Virus record (IMG/VR): IMGVR_UViG_3300047510_002187
Coordinates: 157,073 to 221,072 of that record
Length of the DNA: 64,000 nt
Reading direction: 5' to 3' (one strand)
DNA from: a virus
Shown here: piece after piece, positions 3,322 to 38,166 of the stretch
Layout: each line of letters begins with the position of its first letter
Numbering within the stretch: position 1 is the first letter of the stretch
Translations under genes and position numbers: made by a program
The notes under the pieces: generated by a model
Databases searched by the model: none
What the model was told of the DNA's origin: nothing
Seen by the model: the letters and a program-made list of their open reading frames with translations, nothing else

Positions 3322-3681
3322 ATGTTTAAAACACTTTCAATTCTTGCTATTCTTTCTTCTGTTCTTTTGCCTATTGAGTCTAAGGCAGCAAGTGGATGTA
3401 CCACTGCTTCTCATTATGGAGTTGGTGATGGATTTCACGGACAATTAACTGCCAGTGGAAATGTATTCAATGCTTATGGTAATTCTGTAGCACATCGTTG
3501 GCTTCCTTTTGGAACTCGCCTTCGTGTTACAAACCAATCCAATGGTAGGTCTGTGGTTGTTCGTGTGACTGATAGGGGTCCATTTATTGCTAGTCGTGAT
3601 TTAGATTTGTCTTATGGTGCATTTGCATCCATTGCTTCTCCGAGTAATGGAGTTGCAAGAGTTTGTTATCGGGTGATTTGA
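3322..3681 (+). CDS. RlpA-like double-psi beta-barrel protein
   Basis: 119 residues with a clear signal peptide (FKTLSILAILSSVLLPIESKA). The rest is one RlpA-like barrel: ASHYGVGDGFHGQLTASG, PFGTRLRVTN and VVVRVTDRGPF with the conserved Asp, then RDLDLSYGAF. RlpA-family enzymes are peptidoglycan lytic transglycosylases or glycan-binding proteins. With the lysozyme upstream it forms a two-gene cell-wall cassette ended by a strong terminator. Confidence 0.85.
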   Translation: MFKTLSILAILSSVLLPIESKAASGCTTASHYGVGDGFHGQLTASGNVFNAYGNSVAHRWLPFGTRLRVTNQSNGRSVVVRVTDRGPFIASRDLDLSYGAFASIASPSNGVARVCYRVI

Positions 3682-3690
3682 TATTTTAGC

Positions 3691-3714
3691 GGGGACCTTA
3701 GGGTCCCTTTTTTT
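3691..3714 (+). terminator. Intrinsic terminator
   Basis: GGGACC-TTAG-GGTCCC stem-loop with seven T, directly after the RlpA-like gene. Confidence 0.85.
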
Positions 3715-3721
3715 ATAAATA
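3714..3721 (+). promoter_or_regulatory. T4-type late promoter
   Basis: TATAAATA, the T4 late-promoter element recognised by gp55/gp33, 20 bases before the ATG at 3741 and fused to the T-tract of the upstream terminator. Confidence 0.7.
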
Positions 3722-3740
3722 AAAGAAAAGTATTGTTAAA

Positions 3741-4337
3741 ATGGAAGCAGTAGATTTAGTAGAAGCTTATTCGCAGGTTTATCAAGATCAGGAACTTGGT
3801 GAGGCAAATAAACTTGAGAAATACAGAAATGCAACTGAAAGACAAAGAGTAGGGCGCAGACAATCCCGCGATTTTGAAAATATTTTACATCCTGCTGATT
3901 GGGACACCCAAGGTGAACCAGTAAGGAAAAAAATCCATGCAGATAAAAGAGGTGTTAAGAAAAACACAAACCGCGAAAGTTACGACCTCTACGATATAAT
4001 CCTCTCCCATCTTCTTGATGAAGGATATGCTGAAACCTCAGAAGCAGCAGAGCAAATGATGGTAAATATGAGTGAGGGTTGGAGAGATAGTATTCTTCAA
4101 GAATTATGGAGAGGTAGGCATGGGCAATCAGAAACTGATTATATGAATTCTCGTTCTCAAGGCGGAAAGATGATTTCTGGTGATTCTAAACATAGTGGTG
4201 CTGCTTATTCGCATCGTTCTTATAAAGGAGTTGGAAGTCCTGCTAAACCAGGGGAGCATCAACCTAATCAAGGTCGTATGGATTCCGGCACTAGAACCGA
4301 TTTACAATATCGTAAAGCACTCTTAAAGAAAAAATAA
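3741..4337 (+). CDS. Virion-type protein with the LYDIILSHLLDEGYA module
   Basis: 198 residues. The centre carries SYDLYDIILSHLLDEGYAET and NMSEGWRDSILQELWRG, the same module as in the gene at the left edge. The flanks are basic and hydrophilic. A late promoter 20 bases upstream supports a virion or assembly role. The N-terminal AVDLVEAYSQVY is another helical segment. No enzymatic motif is visible; I infer a head- or core-associated protein without direct evidence. Confidence 0.65.
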   Translation: MEAVDLVEAYSQVYQDQELGEANKLEKYRNATERQRVGRRQSRDFENILHPADWDTQGEPVRKKIHADKRGVKKNTNRESYDLYDIILSHLLDEGYAETSEAAEQMMVNMSEGWRDSILQELWRGRHGQSETDYMNSRSQGGKMISGDSKHSGAAYSHRSYKGVGSPAKPGEHQPNQGRMDSGTRTDLQYRKALLKKK

Positions 4338-5214: not shown

Positions 5215-5335
5215 GGGAACGTAGCTCAAGTGGTTAGAGCACCCACCTTACGGTATCAAAAGATTGTTAATGGGGGGGCAGTACCCTCTATACCGAATAA
5301 GTGGGAGGTTCTGGGTTCAATCCCCAGCGTTCCTA
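5215..5335 (+). tRNA. tRNA-Ile(TAT) interrupted in the anticodon loop
   Basis: Acceptor GGGAACG/CGTTCCT, D arm and T arm are normal, and the anticodon stem CCCAC (5242-5246) pairs with GTGGG (5301-5305). The loop is 54 nt instead of 7: CTTA, an insert closed by CGGTAT (5251-5256)/ATACCG (5290-5295), then AATAA. Removing 47 nt would leave CTTATAA with anticodon TAT. The insert is far too short for a group I intron, so how it would be removed is unknown. Confidence 0.75.
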
Positions 5336-5987: not shown

Positions 5988-6129
5988 TTGGTGTTTCCTA
6001 GTGATAGGATAAGGTATTCCTCATAACAGAGTAATCTGGAGGAGTAAGGAGGCATCCTTATTAGTTTTAGTATCTTTTGCTGGACTTATAATCCTGTCTT
6101 TAATGACGAAGTAAAACACCGAATTCTTT
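5988..6129 (+). other. Structured spacer, possible ncRNA
   Basis: GGTGTTT (5990-5996) can pair with AAACACC (6114-6120), enclosing about 117 nt that include TAAGGA/TCCTTA. No ORF and no T-arm motif, so it is not a tRNA I can recognise. It directly precedes E1. Confidence 0.3.
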
Positions 6130-6182
6130 TAGATGATTCAGCAATTTTTACTTTTCTTTTGGGTAGAAAAAACAATCATCTA
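6130..6182 (+). ncRNA. CAGCAAU element E1
   Basis: TAGATGAT (6130-6137) pairs with ATCATCTA (6175-6182). The 5' strand of the internal loop is TCAGCAATT, followed by a hairpin TTTTCT/AGAAAA and an A-rich 3' strand. One of six copies in the window (see findings). Confidence 0.65.
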
Positions 6183-6194
6183 GTCTAAACATAA

Positions 6195-6231: not shown

Positions 6232-6627
6232 ATGTTTGAAAACTGCAAAAACACCAAAAAACAAGGTGATGTTGGATTAGGTTTATGTATTTCTCACTTT
6301 TGTTATCTTGGATATACTGTTTCAATTCCTTTAACAGATAGTCAAGATTATGATTTGATAGTTGATTTTCCTGAACTTGGATTACAAAAAATTCAAGTTA
6401 AGACAACCAACTCAAAATCATCTAGTGGGAAATATGTAGTAGGGTTGAGAATTACTGGCGGAAATAGTAAATCTAATTTTGTCAATAAACTCAACACTGA
6501 AATCTTTTATGATCAGTTATTCGTACTGACTTCTAATGGTGATAAGTATCTTATTCCAAAAGAAATCATAAAAGATAACAAAAATTCAATTAATCTTGGT
6601 GAAAATTATTTGCAGTATAAACTCTAG
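6232..6627 (+). CDS. PD-(D/E)XK endonuclease of the group I intron homing type
   Basis: 131 residues. KKQGDVGLGLCISHF, YDLIVDFPE and the Q-x-K core QKIQVKTT match the PDDEXK_5 family that includes I-Ssp6803I, a homing endonuclease from a cyanobacterial tRNA-fMet intron (family knowledge). Catalytic Asp and Lys are visible. The stop codon TAG overlaps the first base of tRNA-Tyr. Position in a tRNA array fits an endonuclease that targets tRNA genes; substrate not shown. Could also be a restriction-type nuclease. Confidence 0.65.
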   Translation: MFENCKNTKKQGDVGLGLCISHFCYLGYTVSIPLTDSQDYDLIVDFPELGLQKIQVKTTNSKSSSGKYVVGLRITGGNSKSNFVNKLNTEIFYDQLFVLTSNGDKYLIPKEIIKDNKNSINLGENYLQYKL

Positions 6628-6717
6628 GGAGAGTGGCTACTGTCGGCAATATGTGTAGTCCGTGTCTGTAAAACACGTACATAGGAACCATCGGGGGTTC
6701 GATTCCCTTCTCTCCCA
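6627..6717 (+). tRNA. tRNA-Tyr(GTA), class II
   Basis: Acceptor GGGAGAG/CTCTCCC, anticodon stem CGTGT/ACACG with loop CTGTAAA, and long variable arm. The D loop is longer than usual (about 14 nt). Its first base is the last base of the preceding stop codon. Confidence 0.9.
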
Positions 6718-10320: not shown

Positions 10321-10338
10321 TTACACCGTAAGGTGTAT

Positions 10339-10397
10339 TAGATGAGTCAGCAATTCTTGCACTAGACGTTTAATCTAACCAGCAAAAAACTCATCTA
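10339..10397 (+). ncRNA. CAGCAAU element E2
   Basis: TAGATGAG (10339-10346) pairs with CTCATCTA (10390-10397). TCAGCAATT follows the helix; inside are TTGC/GCAA and TAGA/TCTA helices, then AAAAA. Located in the leader of the Ro-like gene in tandem with E3. Confidence 0.65.
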
Positions 10398-10402
10398 GAA
10401 CA

Positions 10403-10454
10403 AAGTTGATTCAGCAATCAACAAATTGTTCTTCAAAACAACCAAAATCAACTT
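10403..10454 (+). ncRNA. CAGCAAU element E3, in the leader of the Ro-like gene
   Basis: AAGTTGAT (10403-10410) pairs with ATCAACTT (10447-10454); two pairs differ from the other copies by compensatory changes. TCAGCAAT follows the helix and TTGTT/AACAA forms the apical hairpin. It ends one base before the GGAG ribosome binding site of the gene at 10466, so binding there could control translation. Confidence 0.65.
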
Positions 10455-10465
10455 GGAGAAAAATC

Positions 10466-11944
10466 ATGACTTTTATTACTGCACTAGAAACTGAACTGAA
10501 TAACACTGTTACTGAGAACGGAGCAAAAGCATATTCTTCTACTCTCAACAAGTGTCTGGATCTGTTCGGTAAGATCGCCGCATGTCGGAACGATCTGAAC
10601 CAGGCACAAAAACTGTTCGCATTTGCCTTCAAGGAAGATCCTGAAACTGCGACCCGTATTCTCTTCTGGGCACGGGATGTTCGTGGTGGTCAGGGAGAGC
10701 GTGATGTCTTTCGTAATCTCTTCAAGTATCTCGTAGAGGAAGATGCTGAAATCGGTGCAAAGCTGGTTGAATTCGTTCCTGTTTACGGTCGTTGGGATGA
10801 CCTTCTTGTTCTTGAGAACACTTCCGCTTGGAACACTGTTCTTGATGTAATTCAGAAGCAACTCAATGCAGACAATGTTCTTGCCTCTTCTGGTGGTAAC
10901 ATTTCTCTGCTTGCGAAGTGGCTGCCTTCTATCAATGCTTCCAGCAAGGATAGCAAGCGTCTTGGTCGCAAGATTGCAGAATATCTTGGTCTGAGTGAGC
11001 GTGAGTATCGTAAGACTCTTGCGAATCTGCGTAATTACATCAAGATTATTGAGACTGCAATGTGCTCTAAGGAGTGGTCAGCAATTGACTATTCCAAGGT
11101 TCCTTCCCGTGCTGCTTTCATGTACCGCAAGGCATTTGCAAAGCAAGACGGAACTCGTTACCAAGAGTATCTGAATGCTGTTTCTAAGGGTGAAGCAAAG
11201 ATCAACGCTGCAACTCTGTATCCTTATGATATTGTCAATGAGTATCTCTACAGGGGTGCTCGTCATGACAAGACTATTGATCTCCAGTGGGAGGCACTGC
11301 CTAACTATATGGAAGGTCAAGAGTTCAACGGTCTAGTTGTTGCTGACGTTTCTGGTTCCATGTATGGTATGCCTATGGCAGTTTCCATCTCTCTTGCAAT
11401 GTATATTGCAGAACGGAACACTTCTCCTGTCTGGAAAGATAAGTTCATCACTTTCTCTGGAAATCCTAAATTGCAAACAATTGCGGGTTCTACTATCGGA
11501 AAGCGTATTGAACACCTTTCTCGTGCTGAATGGAGTATGAATACTGACCTCATGGCAGTATTTAAGACTATTCTGGATGCAGCAATGACTCATGATGTCC
11601 CTGCAGAAGATATGCCACAAAAACTGATCATTGTCTCTGACATGCAGTTTGATCAAGCATGTTCTTCCAACAAGCGTACCAACTTTGAGCAAATTCAAAA
11701 ACTCTACCGCAAGGCAGGTTATGAAATGCCTCAACTGGTATTCTGGAACGTGAACTCTTATGCTAACGTTCCTATCACTTCACATGACACTGGTACTGCT
11801 CTAGTGTCTGGTTGCAGTCCTTCCATTCTCAAGTCAGTTCTGACTGGTGGAACTCTGACTCCAGTTGACGTGATGAACGATGCAGTGTATGCTGAGCGTT
11901 ATGATGAAGTCGGTCACGTCTTTCATCCTCTGCCACTTAGTTGA
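10466..11944 (+). CDS. Ro60/TROVE-like protein with C-terminal vWA domain (DUF2828 type)
   Basis: 492 residues from the ATG after GGAGAAAAATC. The N-terminal helical region has FWARDVRGGQGERDVF and VPVYGRWDDLL, signatures shared by TROVE and DUF2828 proteins. The C-terminal vWA domain has an intact MIDAS: ADVSGSMYG (~residue 292), a Thr in NTDLM (~358) and Asp in VSDMQFD (~390). Ro60 family members form RNA-binding rings that hold misfolded RNAs and Y RNAs, sometimes with tRNA-like modules. It lies between CAGCAAU elements and tRNA-like genes. TROVE versus DUF2828 membership cannot be settled by eye. Confidence 0.75.
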   Translation: MTFITALETELNNTVTENGAKAYSSTLNKCLDLFGKIAACRNDLNQAQKLFAFAFKEDPETATRILFWARDVRGGQGERDVFRNLFKYLVEEDAEIGAKLVEFVPVYGRWDDLLVLENTSAWNTVLDVIQKQLNADNVLASSGGNISLLAKWLPSINASSKDSKRLGRKIAEYLGLSEREYRKTLANLRNYIKIIETAMCSKEWSAIDYSKVPSRAAFMYRKAFAKQDGTRYQEYLNAVSKGEAKINAATLYPYDIVNEYLYRGARHDKTIDLQWEALPNYMEGQEFNGLVVADVSGSMYGMPMAVSISLAMYIAERNTSPVWKDKFITFSGNPKLQTIAGSTIGKRIEHLSRAEWSMNTDLMAVFKTILDAAMTHDVPAEDMPQKLIIVSDMQFDQACSSNKRTNFEQIQKLYRKAGYEMPQLVFWNVNSYANVPITSHDTGTALVSGCSPSILKSVLTGGTLTPVDVMNDAVYAERYDEVGHVFHPLPLS

Positions 11945-11958
11945 GTGACACAAGGGGG

Positions 11959-11987
11959 TTGACAAAATCTTCCCCCTCTGTTAAAAT
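11959..11987 (+). promoter_or_regulatory. Promoter, TTGACA-17-TAAAAT
   Basis: The -35 box lies in the loop of an AGGGGG/CCCCCT hairpin. The predicted start (about 11994) coincides with the first base of E4, so E4 would form the 5' end of the transcript of the tRNA-like operon. Confidence 0.75.
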
Positions 11988-11994
11988 AATTTCA

Positions 11995-12045
11995 TAGATG
12001 GTTCAGCAATTCTCTTCTTAGGTTAAAGAAAACAAAAACCATCTA
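11995..12045 (+). ncRNA. CAGCAAU element E4
   Basis: TAGATGGT (11995-12002) pairs with ACCATCTA (12038-12045); TCAGCAATT, hairpin TTCTT/AAGAA, then an A-rich strand. Six bases before the first tRNA-like gene. Confidence 0.65.
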
Positions 12046-12050
12046 GTTTT

Positions 12051-12170
12051 GCCGAGATAGTTTAATTGGATAAAACGCTTAAAAAATCGGTTATCTTGAA
12101 AAAGATACAGACAGCAATTCTATTAATCCATGTTAAGGAGGTGTTCTAGGTTCGAATCCTAGTCTCGGCG
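12051..12170 (+). tRNA. tRNA-like gene 1 with permuted CAGCAAU module
   Basis: 120 nt. Acceptor GCCGAGA/TCTCGGC, D arm GTTT/AAAC and T arm CTAGG/CCTAG are intact, and CTTAA/TTAAG can form the anticodon stem. In place of a 7-nt loop there are about 50 nt: AAAAAATCGG, hairpin TATCTT-GAAA-AAGATA with a GNRA loop, then CAGACAGCAATT. No credible anticodon loop can be assembled. Either a tRNA with a mini-insert or a tRNA-mimic RNA. Confidence 0.6.
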
Positions 12171-12195
12171 TCAGACAGTTCTCTGTCTGTTTTAT

Positions 12196-12280
12196 GGGGA
12201 AGTTCTCTGGGGGACCGGAGATTATCTAGATTTAGATAAGTCAGCATCGCACCTAATAAGTTCGACTCTTATCTTCTCCG
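12196..12280 (+). tRNA. tRNA-like gene 2
   Basis: 85 nt. Acceptor GGGGAAG/CTTCTCC, D stem CTCT/GGAG and T arm ATAAG/CTTAT. The anticodon arm is a 7-bp hairpin TTATCTA-GATT-TAGATAA with a 4-nt loop, which cannot present a normal anticodon, followed by GTCAGCATC, close to the CAGCAAT core. Confidence 0.55.
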
Positions 12281-12284
12281 CTTA

Positions 12285-12338
12285 TAGATAGTTCAGCAAT
12301 TTACCGTTTATTCCAAAACGACCATAAAAAACTATCTA
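12285..12338 (+). ncRNA. CAGCAAU element E5
   Basis: TAGATAGT (12285-12292) pairs with ACTATCTA (12331-12338); TCAGCAATT, hairpin CGTTT/AAACG, then CATAAAAA. Confidence 0.65.
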
Positions 12339-12344
12339 GTCTCC

Positions 12345-12456
12345 GGGGAGGTAGCTCAATTGGTAGAGCAACCGTCTAATAAATACATCGAGTTAATTGA
12401 TGTTAACAGCAAAATACTAAAACAGTCCGTCGTAAGTTCAATTCTTACCCTCCCCT
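12345..12456 (+). tRNA. tRNA-like gene 3
   Basis: 112 nt. Acceptor GGGGAGG/CCTCCCC, D arm GCTC/GAGC and T arm GTAAG/CTTAC are normal. The anticodon region holds about 40 extra nt: an A-rich stretch AATAAATA, hairpin CATC/GATG, then TTAACAGCAAAA. A CTAA copy lies on each side of the insert. The possible stem ACCGT/ACAGT has one mismatch; anticodon undetermined. Confidence 0.55.
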
Positions 12457-12460
12457 CTTA

Positions 12461-12513
12461 AAGATGAGGCAGCAATCTTAGGATCTCTTGGTTCGATTCC
12501 AAAAACTCATCTT
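12461..12513 (+). ncRNA. CAGCAAU element E6 with T-arm-like hairpin
   Basis: AAGATGAG (12461-12468) pairs with CTCATCTT (12506-12513), a compensatory A-T for T-A change at the outermost pair. GCAGCAAT follows. The apical hairpin is TTGG-TTCGATT-CCAA, i.e. a perfect tRNA T loop, then AAA. Confidence 0.65.
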
Positions 12514-12518
12514 GACCC

Positions 12519-12637
12519 GCCGAAGTGGTGTAATGGTAGCATTAAAAAAGCGGTTATCTTGTAAAAGATACAGACAGCAATTACTCTAACAATTCTCTGC
12601 CAAAGAAAAGGACCGGGTTCGAATCCCGGCTTCGGCT
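12519..12637 (+). tRNA. tRNA-like gene 4 with permuted CAGCAAU module
   Basis: 119 nt. Acceptor GCCGAAG/CTTCGGC, T arm CCGGG/CCCGG, D arm GTGT/GCAT. The middle contains AAAAAAGCGG, hairpin TATCTT-GTAA-AAGATA with a GNRA loop, then CAGACAGCAATT, nearly identical to tRNA-like gene 1 although the bodies differ. No normal anticodon arm can be drawn. Confidence 0.6.
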
Positions 12638-25867: not shown

Positions 25868-26025
25868 AAATACATCAACAGGTCAGGAAACCCTGACATT
25901 GTTGCCTTGCTTACCGGGACTTTGCAAGTAAAATACGTCTCTCATCTTACCTTCTCTTGAGGGTAGAGAAGGAAAATAACGCACAGAATCTTCCCTGGAT
26001 TCATCTTATTTTCTTTTTAATTCTT

Positions 26026-27317
26026 ATGACTGCTACAATTGCTACACGTTCAATTTCTAATCCCTGGCAGGACTTCTGCGAGTGGGTGACTTCAACCAAC
26101 AATAGGTTGTATGTCGGGTGGTTCGGAGTTCTTATGATTCCTTGCCTTCTTGCTGCGACCATCTGCTTTGTTATTGCCTTCATTGCTGCACCTCCTGTAG
26201 ATATTGATGGCATTCGTGAACCTGTTTCTGGTTCACTCATGTATGGAAACAACATTATCTCTGGTGCTGTTGTTCCTTCTTCTAATGCAATCGGACTTCA
26301 TTTTTATCCTATCTGGGAAGCAATGAGTCTTGATGAATGGCTTTATAATGGTGGTCCTTACCAACTTGTTGTATTTCACTTCCTGATTGGTGTCTTCTGC
26401 TATATGGGTCGTGAATGGGAACTTTCTTATCGTCTAGGTATGCGTCCTTGGATTATGGTTGCTTACAGTGCTCCTGTTGCTGCTGCCACTGCCGTATTCC
26501 TTGTTTATCCTTTCGGTCAAGGTTCTTTCAGTGATGGAATGCCTCTAGGTATCTCTGGCACTTTCAACTACATGCTTGTGTTCCAGGCAGAACATAACAT
26601 TCTTATGCATCCGTTCCATATGCTCGGTGTTGCAGGTGTGTTTGGTGGGTCACTGTTCAGTGCTATGCATGGTTCACTTGTGACTTCTTCACTGGTTCGT
26701 GAAACCACTGAGACTGAATCTCAGAACTATGGTTACAAGTTCGGTCAAGAGGAAGAAACTTATAACATCGTGGCTGCACACGGTTATTTCGGTCGTCTTA
26801 TTTTCCAATATGCGTCCTTCAATAACTCCCGTTCACTACACTTCTTCCTCGCCGCTTGGCCTGTAGTTGGTATTTGGTTCACTGCTCTCGGGGTTTCTAC
26901 GATGGCTTTTAACCTCAACGGACTAAATTTCAACCAGAGTATTCTGGATAGTCAGAACCGAGTAGTTCCTACTTGGGCGGACATTTTAACAAGAGCAGGA
27001 CTGGGAATGGAGGTTATGCACGAGCGTCAAGTTGTGCTTTGCGCTCTTTAAATCGGATGAATTGCTGGAAACCCCAAGTGGGCAATCAGCATCCAAGTCT
27101 TAGATACATCTAAGAAAGGTTCAGAGACTACCTGAGGGATATAGTTCCCTTAATAACAGGAATAAGCGTCCGACACCAGAAATGGTGATGATATAGTCCA
27201 ATCCTGATAGCAATATCAGATAGTTAAGGAAAGTTTAAGAATGCACACAACTTTCCTTTAGATTTGGCGGCAGCGGAAACAACTTCGGTTGCTCTAACTG
27301 CTCCTTCTATTGGTTGA
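26026..27317 (+). CDS. psbA: Photosystem II D1 protein, interrupted by a group I intron
   Basis: Exons 26026-27027 and 27240-27317 join to 359 residues; the unspliced frame stops in the intron at 27051. The start is set by alignment to D1 (MTATIATRS, then GWFGVLMIP); the ATG at 25957 is rejected as it adds a non-D1 extension. Functional residues are all present: Tyr161, Asp170, Glu189/His190, His198, His215, Ser264, His272, His332, Glu333, His337, Asp342 and Ala344. Residue 130 is Glu, as in high-light D1 forms. The intron falls after Arg334, between Mn-ligand codons 333 and 337, so splicing is essential for an active oxygen-evolving protein. Confidence 0.97.
27028..27239 (+). ncRNA. Group I intron in psbA, 212 nt, no internal ORF
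   Basis: The 5' exon end GAGCGT (27022-27027) pairs with the intron guide GCGCTC (27041-27046), placing the required U-G pair at the splice site; the intron ends in G. Core elements are visible: P/Q (AATTGCTGGAAAC and AATCAGCATCCAAG) and R/S (AGAGACTA, 27123; GATATAGTCC, 27190). It has no endonuclease gene inside; two lie downstream. Confidence 0.93.
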
Positions 27318-38030: not shown

Positions 38031-38036
38031 AGACCA

Positions 38037-38166
38037 ACGTTCATCCGCTCAGGCGGACGCAAGTAGGACGACGAGGAACGCACTCGTTCATTCGTTATTA
38101 TGGTAACGAACGGAAACGCCGCCCGAAGGAACGGGACTTAAAAATCTCATTCTGGAGGAAATCCTA
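38037..38166 (+). ncRNA. Highly structured 5' leader RNA
   Basis: At least four hairpins in about 130 nt: CCGC/GCGG (38045-38056), CGAG/CTCG (38072-38086), TTCGTTA/TAACGAA (38091-38110) and CCCG/CGGG (38122-38135), then a GGAGGAAA ribosome binding site. GC-richer than its surroundings. May be a riboswitch-like or protein-binding leader. Confidence 0.55.

What the first reader, a model, noticed from the sequence alone, without database searches (positions are those of the whole stretch)
12051..12637. Four abnormal tRNA-like genes; two or three carry the CAGCAAU core in circularly permuted order
tRNA-like genes 1 and 4 keep acceptor, D and T arms, but the anticodon region is A-rich strand, then UAUCUU-GNAA-AAGAUA, then CAGACAGCAAUU. 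In the free elements the order is AGAU helix strand, CAGCAAUU, hairpin, A-rich strand, AUCUA. The module is thus the same internal loop opened at the other end: the tRNA body takes the place of the apical hairpin and a GNRA loop caps the helix. Gene 3 shows a weaker version (AATAAATA, CATC/GATG, AACAGCAAAA) and gene 2 has GTCAGCATC after a 7-bp hairpin. No normal anticodon loop can be drawn. They may be tRNA mimics rather than decoding tRNAs.
Basis: partly seen in the sequence, partly recalled or inferred. Interest (0 to 1): 0.85.

Follow-up and report, generated by a model that had tools for sequence, protein, structure and literature searches.

The report
Phage tRNA chimeras beside Ro60-like gene
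A large cyanobacteria-type virus carries a set of small RNAs, some of them built into tRNA genes, that share one folded module and sit around a gene for a relative of the human Ro60 RNA-binding protein; the same pairing turns up in phages of several unrelated hosts, so these odd tRNA genes are probably the RNA half of a viral RNA-handling machine.

Summary
In genes 1 and 4 the same module is opened at the other end and sits in the anticodon stem; gene 3 is weaker; gene 2 has no anticodon arm. (1) The array flanks a DUF2828 gene (10466-11944) whose predicted fold matches Ro60, and a copy of the hairpin abuts its ribosome-binding site. 23 of 35 stretches found by the RNA pattern alone hold this gene; 15 of 20 further module-bearing records lacking it nearby encode it elsewhere; 14 of 19 diverged Ro-phage loci have the module in the fetched flanks. 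(2) Removing the module from gene 1 leaves an Asn(GUU) anticodon arm, from gene 4 a shorter Gly(GCC) one. In other phages the same chimera is circularly permuted, with a capped acceptor stem and sub-threshold matches to the Y RNA family YrlA. Best reading: Y-RNA partners of a phage Ro60-like protein, in an inside-out tRNA arrangement that I did not find described. Whether the module is spliced out of unpermuted genes is open (about 30%). New variant of a known kind.

The parts
10466..11944 (+). Ro60-like protein gene (DUF2828 + DUF7788, phrog_850 'RNA-binding protein')
   Evidence: Pfam and PHROG matches; AlphaFold model, the ten best VIA matches are all Ro60/TROVE structures, Z 14.1 to 11.2, next unrelated row 9.7
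10338..10398 (+). free hairpin of the module in the 5' region of the Ro-like gene
10403..10454 (+). hairpin of the module whose 3' strand abuts the GGAG before the start codon of the Ro-like gene; proposed autoregulatory operator
   Evidence: same arrangement found by pattern in 12 of 16 loci
6129..6183 (+). free hairpin of the module inside the tRNA cluster, upstream of a PD-(D/E)XK gene
11959..11987 (+). sigma-70-type promoter-like site TTGACA-17-TAAAAT, 7 bases before the first array hairpin
   Evidence: 11 of 12 positions; such sites are below shuffle level in the region as a whole, 3 vs 6.2; equivalent sites in the 7 related loci that I picked after reading; L027, L031, L032, L051 and L055 show none there
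11995..12045 (+). free hairpin of the module
12051..12170 (+). tRNA-like gene 1: tRNA body with the module inserted between anticodon-stem positions 28 and 29 (module about 12080-12126); remainder Asn(GUU), G73
12172..12189 (+). terminator-like hairpin between genes 1 and 2
   Evidence: a like hairpin visible in L025, L030 and L053
12196..12280 (+). tRNA-like gene 2: acceptor, D-like and T arms, no anticodon arm; hairpin then TCAGCATC
   Evidence: same form in L025, L030, L037, L053
12285..12338 (+). free hairpin of the module
12345..12456 (+). tRNA-like gene 3: module in the anticodon region; no unambiguous anticodon arm (C-A mismatch in the stem)
12461..12513 (+). hairpin of the module carrying a T-arm-like hairpin (TTGG-TTCGATT-CCAA)
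12519..12637 (+). tRNA-like gene 4: tRNA body with module in the anticodon stem; remainder Gly(GCC), U73, 4-bp arm

Best explanation
The CAGCAAU/A-rich internal loop with its adjoining stem is the docking module for the phage's Ro60-like protein (DUF2828), and the array is its set of Y-RNA-type partner RNAs. The free hairpins are minimal Y RNAs. The tRNA-like genes are Y RNA-tRNA chimeras in which the module sits in the 5' strand of the anticodon stem. In the permuted, YrlA-like form seen in other phages the RNA's ends lie in the module and the acceptor stem is capped; here the ends lie at the acceptor and the module helix is capped: inside out. Most likely working state: the unspliced RNA is held by the Ro-like protein through the module and presents a tRNA body, usually with an anticodon arm, to tRNA-acting enzymes (phage RNA ligases, host nucleases or PNPase), for tRNA repair, quality control or as a decoy. 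A copy of the module at the ribosome-binding site of the Ro-like gene probably feeds back on its translation. Shown by computation: anatomy, covariation, gene association, Ro60 fold, distribution. Inferred: binding, function, feedback.
For: RNA to protein: 23 of 35 stretches retrieved by the RNA pattern alone hold a DUF2828 match (several stretches share a contig and three of the 23 are this same phage). 19 of 79 stretches from a looser core-plus-T-arm pattern hold it in the flank; of 20 records that I chose from the rest, 15 encode DUF2828 elsewhere, 14 over the cut-off, against 682 of 50,697 phage records in all. Protein to RNA: 29 of 30 loci with 62% or more identity carry the free element on the gene's strand (five of the 30 also have one strict hit on the other strand; mononucleotide-shuffle null 0.015 per 10 kb). 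Diverged Ro-phages (Mycobacterium, Listeria, Enterococcus, Bacillus, Campylobacter, Felix O1 type, BUCT-ZZ01 and others): 14 of 19 loci have a module on the gene's strand, 31 modules against 3 on the other strand and about 1.4 expected from shuffles (eight of the 19 had been read by eye before). Covariation. Ro60 fold. YrlA model matches in L117 (E 5.9e-7 and 7e-4, the second over a module) and L124 (E 4.8e-5, over a module), all below gathering. Joining across the module: 39 of 59 permuted genes give 5-bp anticodon stems, R37 in 38 and U33 in 29 of those 39, mean score 4.36 vs 2.88 shuffled. In loci whose normal tRNAs mostly encode CCA, 6 of 33 permuted genes keep it (my count from the rows). 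Operator 12 of 16. RNA ligases: Rnl1 type in 4 of 10 and Rnl2 type in 9 of 10 Ro-phage records (7 over the cut-off), neither in 6 cyanophages without DUF2828.
Against: No binding, expression or processing data for these phages. The bacterial Y RNA docking motif that I recall, and the YrlA consensus ends printed, differ from CAGCAA/AAAAAC; the YrlA model also rings weakly (E 0.03 to 1.6) on ordinary tRNAs of the window. TROVE (PF05731) matches 0 of 20 such records, and sequence searches of the PDB find no Ro60; Foldseek TM-scores are modest (0.31 to 0.46 by query). No module within about 2.5 kb in Aeh1, Serratia BF, Cronobacter LPCS28 or Lak-C1, nor by descriptor in KVP40; Felix O1-type loci show none on the gene's strand by the strict descriptor nor in the 330 bases upstream, only further downstream. 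5 of 20 module-bearing records show no DUF2828. Unpermuted genes keep the discriminator base that fits their anticodon (22 of 42 vs 13.0 shuffled, p 0.0018), which speaks for charging or splicing rather than pure mimicry. Most counts include related sequences that are not independent.
Confidence: 0.55

Rival explanations
1. Intron-bearing tRNAs. The module is an intron bound by the Ro-like protein; a nuclease cuts at both edges of the internal loop and a phage RNA ligase seals the exons, giving working tRNA-Asn, tRNA-Gly and others. Permuted genes would be circularised and opened in the acceptor loop.
For: Excision restores 5-bp stem plus U33 in 21 of 42 cyanophage-type genes; mean score 5.42 vs 3.57 shuffled. 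ARAGORN accepts 40 of 42 excised and 0 of 42 intact sequences in default mode (the excised forms were optimised for an anticodon arm). BUCT-ZZ01 gives Asn(GUU) and CAU arms with encoded CCA. Discriminator base fits the anticodon, p 0.0018. RNA ligases accompany the Ro-phages.
Against: Gene 2 has no anticodon arm; gene 3 and several homologues give 6- or 8-nt loops, C33 or mismatched stems. ARAGORN's own intron mode gives varying, often different anticodons for the intact genes. The window already has module-free tRNA-Asn(GUU) and tRNA-Gly(GCC). Free hairpins cannot be introns. Permuted relatives mostly lack CCA where their neighbours have it. No module-free orthologue of these genes was found.
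Confidence: 0.3
2. The hairpins are RNA-processing or stability sites recognised by some other phage factor; the Ro-like gene is only a neighbour.
For: Binding is inferred from gene association alone; 5 of 20 module-bearing records show no DUF2828.
Against: Association runs both ways and spans phages of unrelated hosts; the element is placed at the Ro-like start site.
Confidence: 0.1
3. Decayed tRNA genes or a chance repeat family without function.
For: Some copies are irregular.
Against: Covariation in the stem, operator placement, conservation across many phages.
Confidence: 0.03

Closest known systems
YrlA Y RNAs (Rfam RF02553) with bacterial Ro60 (Rsr)
   Same: Ro60-fold protein gene beside small RNAs made of a terminal stem plus a tRNA-like body (T arm, capped acceptor, D arm). 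Permuted phage forms in L117 and L124 match the model at E 7e-4 and 4.8e-5, and a second L117 stretch at 5.9e-7, all below the gathering score. The review PMC8394870 (passages) describes the basal stem tethering Rsr and the tRNA-like domain binding PNPase.
   Different: Different conserved core (CAGCAA / A-rich); an anticodon arm is usually kept; in cyanophages the topology is inside out (acceptor open, module capped); several copies; protein is DUF2828, not matched by the TROVE model.
Phage Ro-like proteins with suspected Y RNAs (Listeria phage CKA15, PMC12282133, passages)
   Same: Rsr-like gene downstream of abundant non-coding transcripts that the authors suggest may be Y RNAs; they also found the protein in purified particles. 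The corresponding region of LP-083-2 (97.6% identical to CKA15) holds three of the modules.
   Different: The passages I saw name no RNA motif, no permutation and no tRNA chimeras; the one region they give by coordinates corresponds to a ROOL RNA match, not to the modules.
Intron-bearing and circularly permuted tRNA genes of archaea and algae
   Same: Module position in the anticodon stem; 3' half before 5' half in the permuted genes.
   Different: No splicing shown; acceptor loops of only a few bases in many permuted copies and CCA mostly lost. The family features are from recall and one passage of PMC10085705.

Membership tests
Ro60 (TROVE-vWA) proteins | Ro60 fold: helical ring plus vWA domain | tested here: met
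   AlphaFold model (mean pLDDT 78.3); all 11 Foldseek matches at E<=0.001 are Ro60/TROVE chains, TM by query 0.31-0.46; VIA Z 14.1 to 11.2 over up to 387 residues, next rows 9.7
Ro60 (TROVE-vWA) proteins | TROVE sequence model PF05731 | tested here: not met
   window protein matches DUF2828 and DUF7788, TROVE not listed at E<=0.1; 0 of 20 module-bearing records match PF05731
Y RNA (YrlA) | match to RF02553 at its gathering score | tested here: not met
   no match over the window elements at E<=3 (its three YrlA rows lie on ordinary tRNAs); sub-threshold matches of relatives in L117 and L124
Y RNA (YrlA) | terminal stem plus tRNA-like body, gene beside a Ro60 gene | tested here: inconclusive
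   met by permuted genes of other phages; in the window the free hairpins have the terminal stem beside the Ro-like gene but the tRNA chimeras are inside out
Y RNA (YrlA) | binding to the Ro protein | not testable with these tools
   needs pull-down or gel shift
tRNA with intron | excision leaves a canonical tRNA | tested here: inconclusive
   met for gene 1, nearly for gene 4, not for genes 2 and 3; 21 of 42 in the cyanophage-type set
tRNA with intron | spliced product exists | not testable with these tools
   needs RNA from infected cells

The most novel reading that the evidence does not exclude
A Ro60-like ribonucleoprotein of phages drives removal of a small protein-docking intron from tRNAs: unpermuted genes would be spliced and permuted genes circularised by phage RNA ligases, giving viruses of bacteria a tRNA splicing pathway with permuted tRNA genes, linked to Y RNA biology.
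Probability: 0.28. Interest if true: 0.95.

Novelty: new variant of a known kind. Interest (0 to 1): 0.8.

Why it matters
It gives a concrete, searchable RNA partner to a protein family found in hundreds of phage records (682), shows tRNA mimicry or tRNA interruption built from one module in several topologies, and makes it directly testable what phages use Ro60-type particles for: tRNA repair, RNA decay, decoys against tRNA-cutting defences, or tRNA splicing.

Tried and rejected
Exact module-free orthologues: the joined exons of L023 Thr and window gene 1, searched in the phage collection, gave only general tRNA similarity; comparison with 501 ARAGORN tRNAs of the loci gave none. Another known RNA family: at gathering scores only tRNA at the window elements; at E<=3 one further match, mascRNA over the 3' end of gene 4 (E 1.5). 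RtcB as the ligase: 0 of 10 records, although Listeria LP-083-2 has an RtcB-like gene nearby. Sequence search of the PDB: no Ro60. RNAfold on the intact genes gives acceptor stem, module hairpin and T arm in genes 1, 3 and 4, the D arm in gene 3 only, and no anticodon arm in place; excised gene 1 folds with the anticodon hairpin but no cloverleaf, excised gene 4 without it. So the arms rest on comparison, not energy. A paper on phage Ro60 with Thermus was not found.

The statement that I did not find this described rests on literature searches only; two central Y RNA papers, PMC4201824 and PMC10870794, are not held, so phage Y RNAs listed there may overlap with some permuted forms. That the 2014 Y RNA paper covers phages is my recollection plus a remark in PMC12282133 (mycobacteriophages).

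Rows dropped: 10 of 52 automatic candidates, read as spurious or as misplaced calls over gene-2-type genes, left 42; so gene-2-type genes are not in those counts. L072 and L079 left the protein alignment because of a stop in the stretch, and L031 was left out too when I retyped the list. An earlier count said 24 of 35 loci; the correct count is 23 of 35. The DUF2828 and Rnl1 searches of the six control phages carry the tool's caution that nothing rang in its named controls; the same models do ring.

Full report
What was checked. The window lies in a 224.5-kb virus record; 258-kb contigs with the identical Ro-like protein exist. Its nearest named relatives by DNA and by this protein are large cyanophages. 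CAGCAAT is enriched, 31 against 9.4 expected, and the free hairpins covary: in 34 aligned copies 99.4% of cells pair, five of eleven pairs change on both sides, and slid controls fall to 27-50% paired; the count of pair types alone is not above its shuffles.

What the surroundings show. The array follows a gene with DUF2828 and DUF7788 domains, PHROG 850 'RNA-binding protein'. Its AlphaFold model (mean pLDDT 78.3, 16-sequence alignment) finds Ro60/TROVE structures first: a TROVE domain, Ro60 of Thermus phage phiLo, the Ro autoantigen, Deinococcus Rsr, human Ro60. Two copies of the hairpin lie before this gene, the second ending at its GGAG (10403-10454); the same layout was found by pattern in 12 of 16 loci. 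A TTGACA-17-TAAAAT site lies 7 bases before the first array hairpin. Equivalent sites stand before the array in the 7 loci that I picked after reading; L027, L031, L032, L051 and L055 show none, so the promoter is not general.

Association in both directions. A pattern for the free hairpin alone pulled 35 stretches from IMG/VR; 23 hold a DUF2828 match. A protein query pulled 52 loci; of the 30 with at least 62% identity, 29 have the strict element on the gene's strand, the miss (L090) showing near-copies by eye. In 19 diverged loci 14 have at least one module on the gene's strand, 31 in all, against 3 on the other strand. In the phage collection as a whole 682 of 50,697 records match.

The tRNA chimeras. 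In 42 unpermuted cyanophage-type genes, removal of the module gives a 5-bp stem with U33 in 21, and the mean score is 5.42 against 3.57 for shuffled 3' parts (both scores include a bonus for U33 and R37). Stem sequences change in step across the module (ACGGC/GCCGT, CTTCC/GGAGG, AGCGT/ACGCT, AGCTT/AAGCT). In 59 permuted genes of other phages the halves join to a 5-bp stem in 39, mean 4.36 against 2.88, here without a bonus. Mycobacteriophage Wilder is a clear case: CGCCA-CTGTTAA-TGGCG, Asn(GUU), inside an RNA whose ends form the module stem. In Enterococcus phage EFDG1 and mycobacteriophage Krypton555 such RNAs match Rfam YrlA below the cut-off. So the cyanophage genes look like the inside-out form of a YrlA-like chimera.

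Mimic or intron? Against ordinary tRNA function: in loci where normal tRNAs mostly encode CCA, 6 of 33 permuted genes do (my count from the rows; 9 of 72 permuted genes in all), and their discriminator bases fit the anticodon only slightly better than shuffled (13 of 29 vs 9.3, p 0.084). For tRNA function of the unpermuted genes: discriminators fit (22 of 42 vs 13.0, p 0.0018), and both BUCT-ZZ01 genes encode CCA; in CCA-encoding loci 4 of 9 genes typed as unpermuted have it, two of the five misses (L191, L193) looking permuted. Window gene 1 (Asn, G73) and gene 4 (Gly, U73) fit; for gene 2 I could draw no anticodon arm in any of five phages, and gene 3 has no clear arm. I therefore hold mimicry to be the common function and splicing of some unpermuted copies possible.

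RNA ligases. Ten Ro-phage records: T4 Rnl1 type in 4, Rnl2 type in 9 (7 over the cut-off), RtcB in 0. Six cyanophages without a DUF2828 match have neither Rnl type; the four records of cyanophages or their kind with the gene (L056, B23, BUCT-ZZ01, L079) each have at least one. Serratia BF and Listeria LP-083-2 have an RNA ligase or RtcB-like gene near the Ro-like gene. This fits an RNA-repair setting, described for bacterial Ro operons (PMC7790460, PMC8394870, passages).

What is known. Phage Ro-like proteins, and in one case suspected Y RNAs, are in print (PMC12282133, PMC7824862, PMC7765460, PMC13148394, PMC12363180; passages only). In the ten literature searches named under Tried and rejected I found no description of the CAGCAA module, its permutation into tRNA anticodon stems, or the operator copy.

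Limits. All function is inferred; many counted sequences are related; energy folding of the intact genes gives only part of the drawn structure; the ligase control is small.

Noticed in passing
window 5215-5335: tRNA-Ile(UAU) carries a different 47-bp insert between anticodon positions 35 and 36, bounded by CGGTAT/ATACCG; phage B23 and locus L072 have the same tRNA stretch without it. No CAGCAA core.
   Followed up: partly
window about 6627-6717: A tRNA-Tyr(GUA)-like gene (CGTGT-CTGTAAA-ACACG, long variable arm) by eye, missed by ARAGORN; it shows as a weak tmRNA match.
   Followed up: no
L115 962-1513 (Listeria LP-083-2): A ROOL RNA match (87.4 bits, below the 99.1 cut-off) corresponds by similarity to the 26,236-26,727 region of phage CKA15, which PMC12282133 reports among the regions with the most reads.
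   Followed up: partly
L098 about 3447-3542 and 3684-3794: The same phage shows, by eye, the module at two other places of a tRNA-like body: beside the acceptor end and in the variable region, both with a Lys-like UUU loop.
   Followed up: partly
window 27018-27220, 25894-25985, 38036-38084: Rfam matches: group I intron, PhotoRC-II RNA and glutamine riboswitch.
   Followed up: no
L021 7967-8218: A match to cyanobacterial (permuted) tmRNA in a phage contig, about 150 bases before the stretch that matches the Ro-like protein.
   Followed up: no
literature, Listeria phage CKA15: The Rsr-like protein was detected in purified phage particles with 20 peptides (PMC12282133, passage), so it may be carried into the cell with the phage.
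   Followed up: no
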